In this document: positions 107 through 6,032 of the stretch, piece after piece
Position numbering within the stretch: position 1 is the stretch's first letter
Layout of the letters: the number at the start of each line of letters is the position of its first letter
From: Oscillospiraceae bacterium
GTDB lineage: Bacteria; Bacillota; Clostridia; Oscillospirales; Acutalibacteraceae
DNA: 6,032 nt
NCBI GenBank assembly: GCA_009786735.1
Contig: WQRM01000098.1
Span: 1 to 6,032 of the forward strand
Direction: 5' to 3'
The notes under the pieces: generated by a model
What the model saw: the letters and a program-made list of their open reading frames with translations, nothing else
Told to the model about the DNA's origin: nothing
The model's database searches: none
Program-made: the position numbers and the translations under genes

Positions 107-160
107 TTTCGATGAGACTGGAACAGGACACAGCGAAGCGGCGAAGCCCCACCGAGGTGG

Positions 161-237
161 TGTAGGGGCGGCAATCTGCCGCCCGTGACGCTCTCTCTTG
201 CACGCGTCAGCATGTAGGGACAACCTGTGGTCGTCCG
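161..237 (+). repeat. Intergenic hairpin repeat pair (TGTAGGGG family, copy 1)
   Basis: Two hairpin units lie in tandem. The first starts with TGTAGGGG at 161 and has stem 166-173/177-184 (GGGCGGCA/TGCCGCCC, 3-nt loop). The second starts with TGTAGGGA at 213 and has stem 218-225/229-236 (GGACAACC/GGTCGTCC, one mismatch, loop TGT). The two start octamers are 52 nt apart. They are joined by a linker that ends in GCACGCGTCAGCATGTAGGG (200-219). The same pair, with the same 52-nt spacing, occurs inverted at 4091-4150. The downstream sequence (238-256, CACCAACCCAACC-like) also recurs inverted near 4207-4225. The rest of the 107-336 gap holds a small CCACC/GGTGG hairpin at 149-160, the hairpin at 293-311 and the RBS at 325-333. 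No gene is supported there. Confidence 0.85.
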
Positions 238-292
238 AAAAACACCAACCCAACCACCCAAACCAGAACATGTCTAAACAACCTTATCTTCC

Positions 293-311
293 GGGCGGAT
301 TACCATCCGCC
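293..311 (+). repeat. Short hairpin GGCGGAT/ATCCGCC upstream of the ABC gene
   Basis: A perfect 7-bp stem (294-300 with 305-311) closes a 4-nt TACC loop. It sits 13 nt upstream of the ABC gene's ribosome binding site. Its size and GGGCGRNN arm match the other intergenic hairpins in this window, so it is probably a degenerate member of the same repeat family lacking the TGTAGGGG lead. If it lies within the leader transcript it could affect translation or stability of the ABC mRNA. No poly-T follows, so it is not an intrinsic terminator. Confidence 0.6.
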
Positions 312-336: not shown

Positions 337-2643
337 ATGCAAGTGTTAGAGAAAACGCAAGAAGAACAACACACCACACAGCCGGACGAGCTGCTGACGA
401 ATCTGCCGCTGCCCGAGGCACTGGCGCAGTTCGCGCAGCAAGAAGGTCTGTTGCGCCGAGCCTGCTTTGCCGTGGTGGGTGATCTGAACTTAACGGGCAA
501 ATACGGCCAAGGTGCGCTGCTGTTTATGCAAAACGGCTTGTGGGCTTATGATGACGTTGCACGCAGCGAGCCGCAATATTTTGCATACACCGACCTGCAC
601 GACGTAAAGGTGCGGCGGATGTATGGCAATGCGCTGTTTCAAGCGCGGGACGAAACGGGCAAGCGGCTGAACATCCTTAGGTTCACTTACGCCGCTGCCG
701 AGGCCGCCGAGGCCGGTGCGCAGTTTGTGGAAAGCTGCGTGGCGGACGGTTTTTCGCCGGCGCTGATTGACGCGGTGCAGGCAGGCTTTGACCGCCGCCG
801 CGCGTTTTGCATGCGCTGCGGTCGCCAGCTGCGCAAACCCGATGCGCCGTGCCTGAACTGCGAAAACAAAGCGCAGACCTTCGGCAAATTCGGCAAGTAC
901 ATACTGGAGCAAAAAGGGCTGCTGATTTTCTGCCTGGTGCTTTCGGTGATCACCACGGCAATGGCGCTTGTGCCGCCGCTGGTGACCGGGCACATGATTG
1001 ACGTGGTGCTGTACTATGGTCAGCTGGACATGCTGTTGTGGATGGTGGTGTTGCTGCTGGGCGTGCATCTGGTGCAGTTTAGCGTCGGTGCGGTGCGCAG
1101 CTACTTTTTGCGCCGCGCAGGCAGCCGCATGGTGGTGGAACTGCGCAAGGATATCTACGCCAAAACGCAGTTTTTGCCCATGCGATTTTTCGACAAAACC
1201 TCAACCGGGTCCGTCATCAACCGCATTCATGGCGACACCAGCGTGCTGCAGCAGTTCATCCTGCGCATCACCCAAGAGGCCGTGGTGCAGCTGTTTTTGA
1301 TGATTGGGCTGATGGTGATTATGTTTTCGCTCAACTGGCGGCTTGCCGCGGTGAGCCTGCTGCCGGTGCCCTTGGTGGTCATTGGCGGGCGCATCTTTGG
1401 CAAAAAGATTGCCCCGCGCTATCGCAGGCTGTGGCGGCGCGGCAGTGCCATTTTCGCGTTGCTGGCAGACACCGTGCCCGGCGTGCGTGTGATCAAAGCC
1501 TTCACCAACGAAGACCGCGCCATTGACAAGTTCGCGCGCTACAACGAAGAGTGGTACAAAGAAGACATGATTGCCGGCAAAATCGCCAGCATCTTCCCCA
1601 ACGTGATGACCTTTTTGGTCACCTGTGGGTCGCTGGTGATTTGGCTGATCGGCGGGCGCTGGGTGATTGACGGCGCGGGCGCAGAAGGTGCGCTTTCGAT
1701 TGGCATGCTGGTGGTGTTCATCACCTATGCCGGGCAGTTCTACAACCCAGTGAACTTCTTCGCAAACCTCAACGACGGCTATCAAAATGCACTGGCTTCG
1801 GTGGAGAAAATCCTCGACATCCTTGAAGCCGAGCCGGAAAGCGACTTCGGCAAAGGCGACCCCATGCCCGAACGCTTGCAGGGGCGCATTGCGTTTCGCA
1901 ACGTGAATTTCTCGTTCGACCGCTCGAAGAAAACGTTGAGCAACGTCAACCTCGTCATTGAGCCGGGCGACATCGTGGGCATTGTGGGCACCACCGGCAG
2001 CGGCAAAAGCACGCTGATTAACCTCATCATGCGCTACTATGACGACTACGAGGGCGAGATTCTCATCGATGGTCGCGACCTTAAGGAAGTGGACATGGCG
2101 TTTTATCGCTCGCAGATTGGCTATGTGCAGCAAGAGCCGCTGATGTTCCGCGCAAGCATCTTCAACAACATCGCCTACGGTGCGGGCGACGTGCACCCCG
2201 AAAGCGTGTTGTATGCCGCTGAAGTTGCCAACGCCCACGGCTTTATCGCGCAGCTGCCCGATGCCTACGACACCCTGCTGGGCGAGCGCGGCACCGGGCT
2301 TTCCGGCGGCGAAAAGCAGCGCATTAGCATCGCCCGCGCGGTGCTGAAGAACCCCGGCATTCTCATCTTTGACGAAGCCACTGCCGCCGTAGACAGCGAA
2401 ACCGAGCATCTCATTCAAGATGCGATTGAGCGGCTGATTCGCGGGCGCACCACGCTGATGATTGCCCACCGGCTGTCTACGCTGCGCAAGGCGAACAAGA
2501 TTATCGTGGTGGACAAAGGCGAGATCATCGAGTTTGGCAGTCCCGCCGAGCTGCTTGCGCTGCAGGGTAAGTACTACAAGCTTGTGCAGATTCAGTCCAT
2601 GGCGGAAGAGGCCGAGAAACAGCGTGCGGAGGAGAATTTTTAG
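337..2643 (+). CDS. ABC exporter half-transporter with N-terminal zinc ribbon, DUF1854-associated
   Basis: This 768-residue protein is much longer than a usual half-exporter (about 580) because of an N-terminal extension. Residues 20-140 form a soluble domain resembling a PH-like fold. A zinc ribbon follows, with C158, C161, C172 and C175. Residues 190-470 hold about six hydrophobic segments (for example 195-217, 231-250, 315-335, 337-355, 420-440), typical of the type IV exporter membrane domain. The nucleotide-binding domain is complete: Walker A GTTGSGKST (551-559, K557), Q-loop Q599, signature LSGGEKQR (655-662), Walker B ILIFDE (675-680) with catalytic E680, and H711. It should act as a membrane homodimer that uses ATP to export an unknown substrate. 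Related exporters sit beside DUF1854 genes, and some are named cyanophycin-associated in Proteobacteria. No cyanophycin gene is visible here. Here a DUF559 gene separates the pair. Confidence 0.93.
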   Translation: MQVLEKTQEEQHTTQPDELLTNLPLPEALAQFAQQEGLLRRACFAVVGDLNLTGKYGQGALLFMQNGLWAYDDVARSEPQYFAYTDLHDVKVRRMYGNALFQARDETGKRLNILRFTYAAAEAAEAGAQFVESCVADGFSPALIDAVQAGFDRRRAFCMRCGRQLRKPDAPCLNCENKAQTFGKFGKYILEQKGLLIFCLVLSVITTAMALVPPLVTGHMIDVVLYYGQLDMLLWMVVLLLGVHLVQFSVGAVRSYFLRRAGSRMVVELRKDIYAKTQFLPMRFFDKTSTGSVINRIHGDTSVLQQFILRITQEAVVQLFLMIGLMVIMFSLNWRLAAVSLLPVPLVVIGGRIFGKKIAPRYRRLWRRGSAIFALLADTVPGVRVIKAFTNEDRAIDKFARYNEEWYKEDMIAGKIASIFPNVMTFLVTCGSLVIWLIGGRWVIDGAGAEGALSIGMLVVFITYAGQFYNPVNFFANLNDGYQNALASVEKILDILEAEPESDFGKGDPMPERLQGRIAFRNVNFSFDRSKKTLSNVNLVIEPGDIVGIVGTTGSGKSTLINLIMRYYDDYEGEILIDGRDLKEVDMAFYRSQIGYVQQEPLMFRASIFNNIAYGAGDVHPESVLYAAEVANAHGFIAQLPDAYDTLLGERGTGLSGGEKQRISIARAVLKNPGILIFDEATAAVDSETEHLIQDAIERLIRGRTTLMIAHRLSTLRKANKIIVVDKGEIIEFGSPAELLALQGKYYKLVQIQSMAEEAEKQRAEENF

Positions 2644-2655
2644 GGGGATTACACT

Positions 2656-2697
2656 CCCCCCTGTCGCTTCGCGACATCCCCCCTCGCCCGAGGGGGG
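2656..2697 (+). repeat. Left two-hairpin inverted repeat of the DUF559 element
   Basis: After C6 (2656-2661) comes hairpin 1, TGTCGC/GCGACA with a TTC loop (2662-2676). Then comes hairpin 2, CCCCCCTC/GAGGGGGG with a GCCC loop (2678-2697). Both stems are perfect. It begins 12 nt after the ABC stop codon. Hairpin 2 is followed by TCTTGAC rather than a T run, so it is not a canonical terminator. A stem this strong could still act as an mRNA 3' stabiliser or a partial attenuator between the exporter and the downstream genes. Confidence 0.85.
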
Positions 2698-2726
2698 TCT
2701 TGACAAAGAGGATACAGAGGTGAAGC

Positions 2727-3149
2727 ATGTCGCTTGAGTACAATCAAAAACTGATTCCGCGAGCACAAGAGTTGCGTCGCAATATGACACCGCAGGAAAA
2801 GCGGCTCTGGTACGGTTTTTTGCAACGTTATCCTGTGCGGTTTCAGCGTCAGAAAACGATAAATCAATACATTGCGGATTTCTATTGCGCAAAGGCAGGG
2901 CTCGTGATAGAAATTGATGGTGCGCAACATTTCGAGAAGCCTGTGGCGGAGTATGACCAGATTAGAACAAACACTTTGGAGAGCATGGGGCTGACGGTGA
3001 TTCGTTTCACCAACCAAGAGGTGGATGTTGCACTTGCGGCGGTGTGCGAAAAGATTGATGAAGTTGCGCAGAAAAACCTTGATTTTCGTCAGAACCCCCC
3101 TCAGACGAGGGGGGAAAGCACGCGTCAGCGTGCAGGGGGGAGAGAATAA
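2727..3149 (+). CDS. DUF559 / Vsr-like endonuclease-fold protein
   Basis: This 140-residue protein belongs to the DUF559 family, whose members share the PD-(D/E)XK fold of very-short-patch-repair endonucleases. Visible hallmarks are ELRRNMTPQEKRLW (15-28), the YIADFYC core with D51, the E62-x-D64 pair in VIEIDGAQHF, Q67/H68, and RFTNQEV with E98. A nuclease activity is therefore plausible, but the biological target of this family is not established. The ATG at 2727 is preceded by GAGGTGA (2717-2723) at a short spacing. Residues 121-140 are encoded by the right inverted repeat, and the stop lies outside it, so the tail is probably not part of the fold. Codons such as ATA and AGA and a lower GC content set it apart from its neighbours and suggest transfer. 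It does not obviously serve the exporter operon. Confidence 0.88.
   Translation: MSLEYNQKLIPRAQELRRNMTPQEKRLWYGFLQRYPVRFQRQKTINQYIADFYCAKAGLVIEIDGAQHFEKPVAEYDQIRTNTLESMGLTVIRFTNQEVDVALAAVCEKIDEVAQKNLDFRQNPPQTRGESTRQRAGGRE
3095..3140 (+). repeat. Right two-hairpin inverted repeat of the DUF559 element
   Basis: This repeat mirrors the left one. Hairpin CCCCCCTC/GAGGGGGG with an AGAC loop (3095-3114) is followed by AAA, then hairpin GCACGC/GCGTGC with a GTCA loop (3118-3133), A, and G6 (3135-3140). Its segment 3118-3137 matches the linker module of the intergenic repeats at 200-219 with two differences in 20. It lies within the last codons of the DUF559 frame and next to the DUF1854 start. Confidence 0.85.
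3135..3143 (+). promoter_or_regulatory. Ribosome binding site of DUF1854 gene, made from the repeat end
   Basis: GGGGGGAGA precedes the ATG at 3152 by about 8 nt. Its G run (3135-3140) is the terminal G6 of the right inverted repeat. The adjoining GCACGC/GCGTGC stem could hold or expose this site, so the element may set translation of the DUF1854 gene. Confidence 0.55.
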
Positions 3150-3151
3150 CC

Positions 3152-3640
3152 ATGGCAATTCGCTACATCGACGGGCCCGAAGCCCGCATCACCGACCACG
3201 ACGGTCTGCTTGTTGACGTGGAGTTCCACCACGGCGACACCTTCACCGCGCTCGAGCCGCGGCGGCTGTTCCCCACCACGGGGCTGGAGAAATACATCAC
3301 CTTGCTCGACGACGACGGCAAAGAAGTCGCCATTGTGCGCGACATCAACAACCTGCTGCCCGAGTCACGCCAGGTGCTGCAGCGCAGCCTGCAGGAATAC
3401 TATATGATACCCAAGGTTAAGCGACTGGTGAAGATGACCGACAAGTTCAAAATTTGGATGTGGACGGCCGAAACCGACCGCGGCACCTATACCTTTGAGA
3501 TTCGCGACCACAACAACACCGTCAAGCCCTTGTATGACGGCCGCGTGCTGATCAAAGACGCCAACGACAACCGCTATGAAATCCCGGACATCAAGCTGCT
3601 GGACAAACGAAGCCAGCGGATGATTTTGCCGAATCTATAA
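3152..3640 (+). CDS. DUF1854 family protein, ABC exporter partner
   Basis: This 162-residue soluble protein has the DUF1854 pattern: LEPRRLFP (34-41), the YITLLDDDGKEVA segment (48-60), LPESRQVLQRSL (69-80), YYMIPKVKR (83-91), TDRGTYTFEIR (108-118) and DGRVLIKDANDNRYEIPD (129-146). It has no signal peptide or membrane segment, so it should be cytoplasmic. Members of this family are encoded next to ABC exporters like the one at 337-2643, which suggests an accessory or regulatory role for that transporter. The biochemical function is unknown. Its start lies two bases after the DUF559 stop. The darA-like gene starts 12 nt after its own stop, so these two are very likely co-transcribed. Length and sequence look intact. 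Confidence 0.88.
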   Translation: MAIRYIDGPEARITDHDGLLVDVEFHHGDTFTALEPRRLFPTTGLEKYITLLDDDGKEVAIVRDINNLLPESRQVLQRSLQEYYMIPKVKRLVKMTDKFKIWMWTAETDRGTYTFEIRDHNNTVKPLYDGRVLIKDANDNRYEIPDIKLLDKRSQRMILPNL

Positions 3641-3652: not shown

Positions 3653-3985
3653 ATGAAACTCATTATCGCAATTGTCAACAACGATGACAGCGCCGTGGTG
3701 GCCTCGGCACTGACCCTGGAGAAATTCAGCGTGACCAAGCTTTCCACCAGCGGCGGATTTTTGATGGTGGGCAACACCACGCTGCTCATCGGCGCGGAGG
3801 AAAATGACGTGCCGCGTGTGAAAGAAATCATCAACGAAAACTCGCGCAAACGTGACCACACCGCGCTGACGGTGAGCTCGTTTGGGCGCGGCACAAACAA
3901 GGATGAACTGCCCGAAGATGCCACCGTGCAGGTGGGCGGCGCGATTGTGTTTGTGTTGAGCGTGGACAGCATGGATAAGTACTAG
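3653..3985 (+). CDS. darA: Cyclic-di-AMP receptor, PII-like (DarA/PstA family)
   Basis: This 110-residue protein matches the full length of the DarA/PstA (formerly YaaQ, DUF970) family of trimeric, PII-like cytoplasmic proteins that bind c-di-AMP at subunit interfaces. The N-terminal strand MKLIIAIV and the motif TKLSTSGGFLMVGNTTLLIG (28-47) are diagnostic. T28, G35, F36, N41 and G47 match positions reported to contact c-di-AMP in the family. A GAIVFVLSVD strand (95-104) closes the ferredoxin-like fold. The downstream target of DarA is not settled in the literature. Here it sits 12 nt after the DUF1854 gene, so it may link c-di-AMP levels, which track osmolytes and cell wall state, to the ABC exporter. 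In many Firmicutes the gene sits beside tmk and holB, so this placement is notable. Confidence 0.93.
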   Translation: MKLIIAIVNNDDSAVVASALTLEKFSVTKLSTSGGFLMVGNTTLLIGAEENDVPRVKEIINENSRKRDHTALTVSSFGRGTNKDELPEDATVQVGGAIVFVLSVDSMDKY

Positions 3986-4030
3986 GGCTAAATGAGAAAT
4001 AATAATGCATAATGCAGAAATGGCGGCGCG

Positions 4031-4150
4031 TGTAGGGGTGAACTGTGTTCGCCCGCGAAATTTCATCGACCTTCGGGCGAACACCGTTCGCCCCTACATG
4101 CTGACGCGAGCAAGAGAAATAGTCACGGGCGGCAGATTGCCGCCCCTACA
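4031..4150 (+). repeat. Intergenic hairpin repeat cluster (copy 2, inverted relative to copy 1)
   Basis: TGTAGGGG at 4031 faces CCCCTACA at 4091-4098 across a 68-bp inverted unit. This unit carries GGGTGAAC/GTTCGCCC and GGGCGAAC/GTTCGCCC hairpins. A second reversed octamer ends the hairpin GGGCGGCA/TGCCGCCC (4127-4145) at 4143-4150. The two reversed octamers are 52 nt apart, the same spacing as at 161 and 213. The linker between them is the inverted counterpart of 184-212, including the module at 4092-4111 (one difference from 200-219). There is no protein-coding evidence. A + strand frame starting at 4005 and running through these repeats is an artefact. Confidence 0.85.
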
Positions 4151-4175
4151 CGCGGGGGCGTGGGTTGACACACAC

Positions 4176-4202
4176 GCCATAAAAAAGACATGGCTGTTTT
4201 TT
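4176..4202 (+). terminator. Weak intrinsic terminator candidate after the ABC-darA cluster
   Basis: A short stem GCCAT/ATGGC (4176-4180 with 4190-4194) with a 9-nt A-rich loop is followed by TG and six T residues (4197-4202). The T run is suggestive, but the stem is only 5 bp, and it lies almost 200 nt after the darA stop, inside repeat sequence. It is offered only as the best terminator-like element in this gap. Confidence 0.22.
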
Positions 4203-4206
4203 AGAC

Positions 4207-4338
4207 TTGGGTGGGTGGTGTTTTCGGACGACCATAGGTCGTCCCTACGAGCATGCGACCCGAGGTCGTGGGGGGGTTCGCTACGTGCGGCAAGGGCCTT
4301 TGGCCCAACGGCTCGTAGGGGCGAGCTTTGCTCGTCCG
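4207..4338 (+). repeat. Intergenic hairpin repeat cluster (copy 3)
   Basis: Several small hairpins are packed together: GGACGACC/GGTCGTCC with an ATA loop (4226-4244), followed by CCCTACG; GCGACC/GGTCGT (4255-4269, one G-T pair); GGGCC/GGCCC (4294-4306); and, after CGTAGGGG (4314-4321), GGGCGAGC/GCTCGTCC with a TTT loop (4319-4337). The left flank GGGTGGGTGGTGTTTTC is the inverted relative of the sequence at 237-256. All fit the dispersed repeat family but with different arms. The remaining sequence up to 4385 is AT-rich leader of the PHP gene. Confidence 0.75.
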
Positions 4339-4385
4339 AAATGCCGAATATCAATACAAAATCAAAAAGAGTCAAAGACATACAC

Positions 4386-4399: not shown

Positions 4400-5722
4400 A
4401 TGCATACCAACAATTTGCAGTTGCGCTACGCCAACGAAGTGCACAACTATGACGTGTATCCCAAGGTGGTGCAGGCGGGCAAAACCAGCGCCATCACCAT
4501 TGCGCCGCGTGGACACCACGCCGCGTTCACGCACGAGAGCTACCGCTTGAGCATTCATCCGTGGGATGAGGGCTCGCGTTGGCAATACCCGGACTACGAC
4601 AACGACTTCATGTTTGAGGCGACGCCCGATGCGGATGGCTGCATTCGGTTTTCGTTCGAGTTCTTCGGCTGCCAGCAGTTTTACATTCGCTTGGCGGACG
4701 ACAAAAACCGGCTGCAGCTGAGCGTGTTTTGCGTGGAAGATGATCTGGTGGGGCGCTATCCGTTGCGCGGCGACCTGCACCTGCACACGAACTACAGCGA
4801 TGGGCGGCAAGCGCCAGCAATCGTGGCGGCGAACTACCGCAAAACCGGCTATGACTTCCTCGCCATCACCGACCACCACCGCTATGCGCCGTCGCTCGAA
4901 GCGATTGAAGTGTACAAAGACGTGCCCATTGAGCTGTGCTTGGTGCCCGGCGAAGAAGTGCATCCGCCGCAGGACGAAACGCACAAAAGCGACCTGCACA
5001 TCATCCACTTTGGCGGCGCGTATAGCATCAACGACATGATGGAAGATGCAGACGAGCACTATGCCCGCGTGGAAGCGTACATGGACGAAATTGAGATTCC
5101 GGCGTGCTTTGTGGGCTCGGAGCGCTACTACTTTGCCAGCTGCCACTGGGCGTTCAGCGAGATTCGCCGAGCGGGCGGGCTGGGCGTGTTCTGCCACCCA
5201 TACTGGATTTCGGACGTGCTGCAGATTCCGCCGAGGCTGACGAACAAGCTGATGGAGCATCTGCCGTTTGATGCCTTTGAGGTGCTGGGCGGCGAGAGCT
5301 ATGAGGAGCAAAACAACTTCCAAACCGTGCAGTATTATGAGCACCGCGCCCAGGGGCTGCGCTATGGCATTGTGGGCAGCACGGACAGCCACAACAGCAT
5401 CAACAGCCGCGACTCGCACGTGTGCCACACGCTTGTGTTTGCGCCGCAAAACGAACGTGAGTCGATCATCAATGCCATTCGCGAGTGCTACAGCGTGGCG
5501 GTGGATACCCAAGACGAAATGCCGCGCATTGTGGGCGATTTGCGGCTGGTGCGCTATGGCTGCTTTTTGCTCAAAGAGTTCTTCCCGCCGCACGACGAAC
5601 TGTGCTTCGAGGAGGGACGCGCGATGCATGACTACGCATGCGGCGTGCCCGGCGCGAAGGAAACACTGGAGTTCATCAGCGGGCGCATGCAGGCGCAACG
5701 AGAGAAGTATTTTGGGTGGTGA
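4400..5722 (+). CDS. PHP-domain metal-dependent phosphoesterase with N-terminal beta-rich domain
   Basis: This 440-residue protein has a PHP domain from about 123 to 350. Metal-binding motifs are DLHLHT (H127, H129), SDG (133-135, D134), AITDHH (D158, H159), GEEV (E185), DLHIIH (H200, H203), FCHPYW (H266) and STDSH (D329, H331). These match a complete trinuclear-type metal site, so it is probably an active hydrolase acting on a phosphate ester or nucleotide. The substrate cannot be told from sequence. Residues 1-120 look beta-rich and may form an immunoglobulin-like or carbohydrate-binding-like domain. No signal peptide or membrane helix is seen, so it is likely cytoplasmic. It stands alone between two repeat clusters, 414 bp after darA, and is probably its own transcription unit. 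The C-terminus (about 375-440) has no recognisable motif. Confidence 0.9.
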   Translation: MHTNNLQLRYANEVHNYDVYPKVVQAGKTSAITIAPRGHHAAFTHESYRLSIHPWDEGSRWQYPDYDNDFMFEATPDADGCIRFSFEFFGCQQFYIRLADDKNRLQLSVFCVEDDLVGRYPLRGDLHLHTNYSDGRQAPAIVAANYRKTGYDFLAITDHHRYAPSLEAIEVYKDVPIELCLVPGEEVHPPQDETHKSDLHIIHFGGAYSINDMMEDADEHYARVEAYMDEIEIPACFVGSERYYFASCHWAFSEIRRAGGLGVFCHPYWISDVLQIPPRLTNKLMEHLPFDAFEVLGGESYEEQNNFQTVQYYEHRAQGLRYGIVGSTDSHNSINSRDSHVCHTLVFAPQNERESIINAIRECYSVAVDTQDEMPRIVGDLRLVRYGCFLLKEFFPPHDELCFEEGRAMHDYACGVPGAKETLEFISGRMQAQREKYFGW

Positions 5723-5732
5723 ATGAGATTTT

Positions 5733-5803
5733 TGTAGGCTTGGGTGACAGTGTTTTTGGGGCTTCGGGCGGCAAGATTGCCGTGCCTACATGCTGACGCG
5801 GGC
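5733..5803 (+). repeat. Intergenic hairpin repeat (copy 4) with linker module
   Basis: TGTAGG at 5733 faces CCTACA at 5785-5790 in a 58-bp unit holding a CGGCAA/TTGCCG hairpin (5769-5782). The inverted linker module follows (5784-5803, matching 200-219 inverted with two differences). It begins 11 nt after the PHP stop codon. No T run follows, so a terminator role is not supported. Confidence 0.75.
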
Positions 5804-5830
5804 GAATGCGCGAGCCGCGTCGCTCCGCGA

Positions 5831-5886
5831 GCCTTCCTCAGCCACGCGCGGCGCGTGCCAGCTCCTTCTAAAAGAAGGAGCCAAGG
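5831..5886 (+). repeat. Solo two-hairpin repeat of a second family
   Basis: CCTTCCTCAG leads to a CACGCG/CGCGTG hairpin with a CGG loop (5843-5857). Then come CCA and a GCTCCTTCT/AGAAGGAGC hairpin with an AAA loop (5861-5881), followed by CAAGG. From memory, similar CTCAG-hairpin-AGCTCC-hairpin-GGAGC units are common in gut Clostridia. The two-hairpin order and spacing resemble the ends of the DUF559 element, but there is no gene beside it. Confidence 0.7.
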
Positions 5887-5922
5887 ATTAGACGGATAAC
5901 GACAGCGGAACTTTCGGCGGGA

Positions 5923-6004
5923 TGTAGGGGCGAACTGTGTTCGCCCGAAGCATAAAAATATGTGTGTTGTTTGAACCCCGGGCGGCAAGATTGCCGCCCC
6001 TACA
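5923..6004 (+). repeat. Intergenic hairpin repeat (copy 5), complete inverted unit
   Basis: This 82-bp unit runs from TGTAGGGGCG to CGCCCCTACA. It carries a GGGCGAAC/GTTCGCCC hairpin with a TGT loop (5928-5946) and a GGGCGGCAA/TTGCCGCCC hairpin (5980-5999). The AT-rich centre between them (5951-5974) resembles no other centre in the window. With the units at 5733-5803 and 5831-5886 it fills most of the last 310 bases, where no gene is visible. Confidence 0.85.
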
Positions 6005-6032
6005 GGTTGCGGCACGCAGCAAGTTGCAGGAA

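What the first reader, a model, noticed from the sequence alone, without database searches (positions are those of the whole stretch)
2656..3140. A Vsr-like (DUF559) gene bounded by mirror-image two-hairpin repeats, inside an ABC exporter operon
The sequence shows two composite ends in inverted order: C6, a 6-bp hairpin, then an 8-bp CCCCCCTC/GAGGGGGG hairpin. The inner stem is identical at both ends while the loops and outer hairpins differ. The gene inside encodes an endonuclease-fold protein with a complete D/ExD core and different codon use. The ABC and DUF1854 genes it separates are normally neighbours. I infer a minimal element made of a nuclease gene plus hairpin ends, without a classical transposase.
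Basis: partly seen in the sequence, partly recalled or inferred. Interest (0 to 1): 0.75.

Follow-up and report, generated by a model that had tools for sequence, protein, structure and literature searches.

The report
Nuclease gene between mobile-like folding repeats
A very small gene for a predicted DNA-cutting enzyme sits between two inverted copies of a DNA repeat that is predicted to fold; related genomes that carry such a gene nearly always have the repeats scattered about while most of those without it lack them, so the enzyme likely helps to spread a widespread class of bacterial repeats whose origin was unexplained.

Summary
The window holds a 489-bp unit (2654-3142): a DUF559 (PF04480, Vsr-like fold) gene between two inverted composite ends. 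Each end is CTCCCCCC, a 6-bp hairpin, then a CCCCCCTC/GAGGGGGG hairpin; the outer block is the exact mirror of the inner arm, the layout of BoxC/PIT/"TM" intrastrand-triplex repeats. In 80 DUF559 loci from other records a strict detector finds an end upstream in 43 of 79 and downstream in 29 of 77 (shuffles 0.3 and 0.1). The ends also occur without the gene, as short inverted pairs (16 plus-minus, 0 minus-plus in this genome). Of 120 family genomes, 25 of 26 with a strong DUF559 match have the repeats against 20 of 94 others; within the genus 7 of 7 against 0 of 7. In cyanobacteria a complete unit, a gene-less repeat pair and a repeat-free site occur at one position of one gene. I infer an autonomous nuclease element with gene-less derivatives, working like RAYT-REPIN systems but with an unrelated enzyme. 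Cutting, movement and triplex formation were not tested; no target duplication was found. My searches found no paper that links DUF559 to these repeats.

The parts
2654..3142 (+). whole unit: DUF559 gene (cut at its last codons) between inverted composite ends, 489 bp
   Evidence: 10-bp terminal inverted repeat (I7); the two other DUF559 genes of the genome have the same layout
2654..2697 (+). left composite end: outer mirror block 2654-2661, middle hairpin 2662-2676, inner hairpin 2678-2697
   Evidence: model R2 match 2656-2696 (this sequence is in the model)
3095..3142 (-). right composite end, inverted: inner hairpin 3095-3114, middle hairpin 3118-3133, outer mirror block 3135-3142
   Evidence: model R2 match 3096-3141 (this sequence is in the model)
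2727..3149 (+). DUF559 (PF04480) gene, Vsr-like PD-(D/E)XK nuclease fold predicted, 140 aa; reads through the right end
5836..5879 (+). solo composite repeat without a nuclease gene
   Evidence: model R1 match, E 0.004; detector hit 5822-5881
337..2643 (+). ABC exporter gene, left neighbour
3152..3640 (+). DUF1854 gene, right neighbour

Best explanation
The unit is likely a minimal mobile element: one gene for a predicted Vsr-fold nuclease (DUF559), bounded by inverted repeats predicted to fold, whose gene-less derivatives would be the short inverted repeat pairs dispersed in the same genomes. Shown here: the anatomy; the enrichment of such ends around DUF559 genes; short inverted pairs of the ends without the gene; co-occurrence of gene and repeats between genomes; and, in one cyanobacterial gene, a complete unit, a gene-less pair and a repeat-free site at one position. 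Inferred: the nuclease recognises the folded end when a strand is exposed (replication, repair), nicks or cuts at it, and copying by host repair or strand transfer places the unit, or a gene-less pair in trans, elsewhere. How the cut becomes an insertion is unknown; alternation of BoxC and REP copies between near-identical flanks in E. coli would suit a break-repair route.
For: Ends around the gene: 13 up, 16 down, 9 both of 31 loci against shuffle means 0.1, 0.05, 0 (loci were held for 31 of the 39 places); 43 of 79, 29 of 77, 20 of 76 in 80 further loci against 0.3, 0.1, 0. Windows 1.2-1.5 kb away 4 of 68 and 2 of 67; 1.8-2.1 kb away 0 of 68 and 0 of 63. Gene-less inverted pairs: 16 plus-minus, 1 plus-plus, 0 minus-plus within 250 bp; with the window's own end type 9 of 9 listed pairs plus-minus. 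Co-occurrence: 16 of 17 against 3 of 23 genomes, 25 of 26 against 20 of 94, genus 7 of 7 against 0 of 7 with two models. Counting only genomes with more than two repeats per gene match: 14 of 17 and 21 of 26, Fisher 1.5e-5 and 4e-8. Site series. Other DUF559 subfamilies lack the ends. Y1 transposase genes do not track the repeats clearly (p 0.09). Nuclease fold.
Against: No cutting, movement, target duplication or base-exact empty site was shown. Strict ends are missing on both sides in 26 of 78 contig loci, and of 19 loci with strict nearest ends on both sides 5 are not inverted; in that set the usual order is minus-gene-plus (12), in the window's genome plus-gene-minus. 20 of 94 family genomes have repeats without a strong gene match; G033 and G374 have the gene without model matches. 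Relatedness was not corrected for. In E. coli the repeats lie on one side of ycjD only (by eye), and strains lacking ycjD still have copies. For the E. coli motif, PMC4666352 reports a triplex of the single strand in vitro but none in double-stranded DNA or by in vivo footprinting (section 20). PMC12907096 reads a Caulobacter DUF559 protein as a repair enzyme (passages).
Confidence: 0.62

Rival explanations
1. Homing-type nuclease: DUF559 would cut at or beside solo repeats already present, and its gene would be copied into them by break repair through repeat homology; the repeats themselves spread by something else.
For: Closest folds include the Vsr-like homing endonuclease I-Bth0305I. The complete unit and a gene-less pair share one site. 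Gene-less repeats far outnumber the genes. BoxC and REP copies alternate between near-identical flanks.
Against: The repeats are mostly absent where the gene is absent, which asks for the gene in their spread; no second gene was identified.
Confidence: 0.2
2. Caretaker: DUF559 is a repair nuclease that deals with folded or triplex DNA, kept in genomes rich in such repeats; it does not spread them.
For: Relation to Vsr; Caulobacter VsrA (DUF559) is read as a mismatch-repair enzyme (PMC12907096, abstract in listing and passages). TM sites are unstable in E. coli (PMC4666352, section 19).
Against: It does not explain inverted ends on the gene itself, nor units and gene-less pairs inside coding genes.
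Confidence: 0.1
3. Passenger: the gene merely tends to land among repeats, for instance because repeats mark tolerated insertion sites; the ends have nothing to do with it.
For: Several loci carry extra repeats beside the two ends.
Against: Inverted order, dispersal of the same pairs, and genome-level co-occurrence; other DUF559 subfamilies lack the ends.
Confidence: 0.05

Closest known systems
RAYT-REP / REPIN systems (PMC2817692, abstract and passages)
   Same: Single gene flanked by two inverted palindromic repeats; the repeats are dispersed and paired without the gene; gene and repeats co-occur.
   Different: RAYTs are PF01797 (Y1/HUH) enzymes; this gene is PF04480 with a Vsr-like nuclease fold. 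The ends are three-block mirror repeats rather than one imperfect palindrome.
BoxC / PIT / TM intrastrand-triplex repeats (PMC4666352; abstract, sections 15, 18, 19 and part 1 of 20 read)
   Same: Outer block plus hairpin in mirror relation, G/C-rich, often inverted pairs, variable between strains. The E. coli repeat beside ycjD fits the described type A/B motif.
   Different: In the window and in clostridia the middle piece is a hairpin, longer than the 1-6 nt loops of that paper's search. The paper reports no mobility gene near the sites.
Vsr, YcjD and the Vsr-like homing endonuclease I-Bth0305I
   Same: Fold; E. coli YcjD is the same Pfam family by name and by NF007294, which the window protein matches below its cut-off.
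   Different: Vsr serves mismatch repair and I-Bth0305I is a mobile-intron protein; neither is known (recalled) to be bounded by such repeats.
MITEs of DDE-transposase elements
   Same: Short gene-less inverted pairs beside a larger gene-bearing unit.
   Different: No DDE transposase in the unit; no target duplication found.

Membership tests
DUF559 / PF04480 | Pfam gathering score | tested here: met
   105.9 bits against a cut-off of 20.6
RAYT (REP-associated tyrosine transposase) | PF01797 / HUH-type enzyme | tested here: not met
   the gene matches PF04480; PF01797 is not among its Pfam matches
RAYT (REP-associated tyrosine transposase) | gene flanked by two inverted palindromic repeats | tested here: met
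   window and L001, L003; in 76 contig loci with both flanks 20 have strict ends on both sides
RAYT (REP-associated tyrosine transposase) | presence of the gene correlates with the repeats | tested here: met
BoxC / PIT / TM triplex repeat | outer block in mirror relation to the hairpin arm | tested here: met
   window, 8 of 8 nt at both ends; 195 modules: mirror better 67, direct better 21, tie 107
BoxC / PIT / TM triplex repeat | loops of 1-6 nt | tested here: not met
   the middle piece is a 15-16-nt hairpin in the window; about 3 nt in the E. coli and cyanobacterial repeats
BoxC / PIT / TM triplex repeat | forms a triplex | not testable with these tools
   shown in vitro by others for the E. 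coli single strand only (PMC4666352)
Transposable element | precise empty site or target duplication | tested here: inconclusive
   occupied and repeat-free homologous sites but junction bases not exact, no duplication defined
Transposable element | observed movement dependent on its enzyme | not testable with these tools
   needs the bench

The most novel reading that the evidence does not exclude
DUF559 nucleases are the missing agents of the BoxC/PIT/TM repeats of bacteria: a new class of mobile element, found from clostridia to cyanobacteria and proteobacteria, in which a single Vsr-fold nuclease and three-block mirror-repeat ends take the place of the HUH transposase and REPs of RAYT systems.
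Probability: 0.5. Interest if true: 0.92.

Novelty: categorically new. Interest (0 to 1): 0.85.

Why it matters
BoxC-like triplex repeats were reported in more than 260 genomes without an assigned function or agent (PMC4666352), and PF04480 is still a 'protein of unknown function' family in Pfam. Tying one to the other would explain both, define a minimal element built on a repair-type nuclease in place of a transposase, and make the origin of a large class of bacterial repeats directly testable in E. coli K-12, which has both ycjD and BoxC.

Tried and rejected
Clean empty site at E. coli ycjD: 3,333 of 5,426 genomes hold one place covering at least 80% of the sapF-ycjD-fabI query. In the four strains without it that I fetched, an MFS / outer-membrane efflux operon follows sapF; PMC12817139 (passages) reports that eefRABCD and ycjD alternate there. 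So not an empty site. Sinorhizobium K101 against C101 and M103: the apparent 124-bp difference was BLAST fragmentation; only single-base differences. YcjD in viral contigs: no relative. A wide DUF559 alignment could not be used for the contig scan; a closer one was. Y1/RAYT as agent: 9 of 19 repeat-positive and 4 of 21 repeat-negative genomes. Rfam: no match in the window and five other loci. PADLOC: only weak matches to larger nuclease models. My first detector setting gave chance hits (about 1.9 per shuffled window), so a score of 12 or more was used from then on; it misses ends visible by eye. Model R1 did not list the window's own C-rich ends, so R2 was built.

Full report
WHAT IS IN THE WINDOW. 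The window is a whole 6,032-base contig (C98) of a 1.59-Mb draft genome in 227 contigs, 71% complete. Genes: ABC exporter 337-2643, DUF559 2727-3149, DUF1854 3152-3640, a cyclic-di-AMP receptor 3653-3985 and a PHP-like protein 4400-5722 (the last just under Pfam's cut-off). The reported hairpins are real and exceed chance. The unit is 2654-3142, 489 bp, with the 10-bp terminal inverted repeat CTCCCCCCTG / CAGGGGGGAG. From outside in, each end reads CTCCCCCC, a 6-bp hairpin, CCCCCCTC-loop-GAGGGGGG. The outer block is the mirror image, not the complement, of the inner arm, at both ends.

THE GENE. PF04480, E 1.3e-30. The model (pLDDT 91.4) matches 3hrl (endonuclease-like protein of N. gonorrhoeae), the Vsr-like homing endonuclease I-Bth0305I and, weakly, PvuRts1I and E. 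coli Vsr; sequence profiles find the first three. E24, Q42, D51, E62, D64, H68 and R80 are among 13 invariant columns in 23 relatives. YcjD was placed in the PD-(D/E)XK superfamily before (PMC1189080, passages).

THE ENDS BELONG TO THE GENE FAMILY. The other two DUF559 genes of the genome also have inverted composite ends (by eye; the strict detector sees both ends of L001 and one of L003). Detector: a 5-nt block repeated across a middle hairpin, plus the inner hairpin, score 12 or more, 300 bp each side of the domain. In 31 loci (of 39 places) it finds ends upstream in 13, downstream in 16, both in 9; 20 rounds of shuffling give means 0.1, 0.05, 0. In the 78 left, 26 have no strict end on either side; of 19 with nearest ends on both sides 14 are inverted (12 minus-gene-plus, 2 plus-gene-minus) and 5 are not. 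The sequence of the ends varies between genomes while the architecture stays, and in 36 aligned ends 5 of 8 predicted pairs show changes on both sides. DUF559 matches drawn from the phylum outside the close relatives mostly lack such ends: short weak matches 1 of 17 and 1 of 17, reading frames over 300 aa 0 of 8 and 0 of 8; three strong ones 0 of 3, two of which show ends of another sequence by eye.

REPEATS WITHOUT THE GENE. Covariance model R1 (36 clostridial ends) has 110 matches in this genome at E 0.01 or less, of 150 candidates scored. Neighbours within 250 bp: 16 plus-minus, 1 plus-plus, 0 minus-plus; the 16 gaps are 38-43 bp (5), 55, 81-84 bp (9) and 122. These are short inverted pairs in the orientation of this genome's DUF559 ends. 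One solo repeat is in the window, 5836-5879. R1 did not list the window's own C-rich ends, so model R2 was built from 11 ends of that type, the window's included. R2 has 70 matches in this genome; among its 150 listed rows over six genomes, 9 of 9 pairs within 250 bp are plus-minus, and the three DUF559 units appear as plus-minus pairs 400-444 bp apart.

GENE AND REPEATS GO TOGETHER. Strong match means 70 bits or more, a line I drew after seeing that the weaker ones are fragments or other subfamilies. Over 40 relatives, 16 of 17 genomes with a strong match have R1 repeats against 3 of 23 others (Fisher 3e-7). Over 120 family genomes (111 genera) it is 25 of 26 against 20 of 94 (1.6e-12); the two searches were the same request and show the same handles, though not every genome is printed. 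The two sets overlap. Within the genus 7 of 7 against 0 of 7 with R1 and with R2. Caution: the ends of the genes themselves count as repeats, and some went into the models. Asking for more than two repeats per gene match leaves 14 of 17 and 21 of 26 (Fisher 1.5e-5 and 4e-8). Against: G033 and G374 have the gene and no R1 match; of the 20 other repeat-bearing genomes three have only weak DUF559 matches (G340, G346, G395) and the rest none listed. Y1 transposase genes occur in 9 of 19 repeat-positive and 4 of 21 repeat-negative genomes (p 0.09).

BEYOND CLOSTRIDIA. Homologues in the plasmid collection, which also holds chromosomes, lie beside repeats of the same plan, with a 3-nt linker or a hairpin in the middle (by eye, five loci): both sides in S. 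meliloti (L184) and N. gonorrhoeae (L183, there in the same direction); one side in E. coli (L180), Sinorhizobium sp. (L181) and Azospirillum (L182). Of nine viral-contig loci printed (of 20) L162, L165 and L166 show them on both sides; L163, L164 and L168 show none. The E. coli repeat fits what PMC4666352 calls BoxC, PIT or TM (abstract, sections 15, 18, 19 and part 1 of 20 read): 23 copies in MG1655, found in more than 260 genomes, five inverted pairs in MG1655, strain-variable sites, no transposase or integrase found near; its main text has no DUF559, ycjD, Vsr or endonuclease. That I call this repeat BoxC rests on that description and on recall of the motif. Triplex geometry asks for a mirror relation: in 195 two-hairpin modules chosen without regard to the outer block, the mirror match is better in 67, the direct one in 21, equal in 107 (related sequences, so not independent).

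COMPLETE, GENE-LESS AND REPEAT-FREE AT ONE SITE. In a Synechocystis sp. B12 plasmid the unit lies inside a pglX-like gene (L195). At the same place Pseudanabaena galeata has only an inverted repeat pair of about 95 bp within one annotated reading frame (L198), and Planktothrix has no such repeat (L199; alignment). Pseudanabaena has a second pair elsewhere in the gene where Synechocystis has none. In another B12 plasmid the unit lies inside a DUF1156 gene; Nostoc and Planktothrix homologues have none there. Homologues are about 70% identical and the sites lie in variable stretches, so junction bases and duplications could not be set. Both Synechocystis host genes look broken for another reason as well; this was only noted.

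STRAIN LEVEL IN E. COLI. The BoxC copy beside ycjD finds 66,549 places, in 5,357 of 5,426 genomes. In 40 records sampled down the ranking, the 24 with a full-length match at 94% or more have 13-22 places; two with full-length matches at 91-93% have 11 and 20; the last 14, with partial matches, have 1-11. That the first group carries the ycjD locus is inferred from the match, and phylogroup is a confounder. Two sites vary between strains: at yhjE-yhjG strain 7/2 has a pair, K-12 ER2796 a REP-like array (recalled motif), ZJ3920 almost nothing; at ypfG-tkt a BoxC copy and a REP-like sequence alternate between near-identical flanks. These look like replacements.

MECHANISM. A RAYT-REPIN-like arrangement with a non-homologous enzyme. 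Shown: anatomy, association, dispersal, co-occurrence, site series. Inferred: recognition and cutting of the ends, movement of the unit, trans-action on gene-less pairs, triplex formation. A DUF559 protein acting on DNA in cells has outside support: Caulobacter VsrA is needed for the SOS response of a methyltransferase mutant (PMC12907096, passages), though its authors read it as a repair enzyme.

IN PRINT? Searches: DUF559 (14 papers listed; two opened for passages), boxC with ycjD (0), ycjD (8 listed; two opened for passages), intrastrand triplex (18, 15 listed), Vsr-like with repeat and transpos (5). None of the listings or passages links DUF559 to such repeats. Most subscription papers and preprints are not held, so this is not proof of absence.

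Noticed in passing
window 160-300, 4020-4350, 5740-6010: Other dispersed repeats, such as GTAGGGGCGGCAATCTGCCGCCC-like and TAGGGGCGAACTGTGTTCGCCCG-like palindromes, unlike the two-hairpin ends.
   Followed up: no
L204 against L205 (E. coli ypfG-tkt); L203, L206, L207 (yhjE-yhjG): BoxC-type copies and REP-like sequences occupy the same intergenic places in different E. coli strains, between near-identical flanks at ypfG-tkt.
   Followed up: partly
L194, L195 (Synechocystis sp. B12 plasmids): Two DUF559 units sit inside methyltransferase-type genes (pglX-like, DUF1156) of kinds often found in phage-defence clusters (recalled).
   Followed up: partly
L196 against L197 (Picosynechococcus PCC 7002 and 7003 plasmids): The same DUF559 locus carries more repeat copies on both sides in PCC 7002 than in PCC 7003 (by eye).
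   Followed up: no
L005, L009: The DUF559 frame runs on without a stop through the right end into what looks like the next gene (open frames of 682 and 799 codons).
   Followed up: no
G009:C468:2293-2838: A plus-minus pair of C-rich ends 462 bp apart without a listed DUF559 match; perhaps a decayed unit.
   Followed up: no
alignment A3 (36 clostridial ends): The base before the middle hairpin and the one after it vary together in most rows (A with G, C with C, T with T), giving end types that recall types A and B of the E. coli repeats.
   Followed up: no
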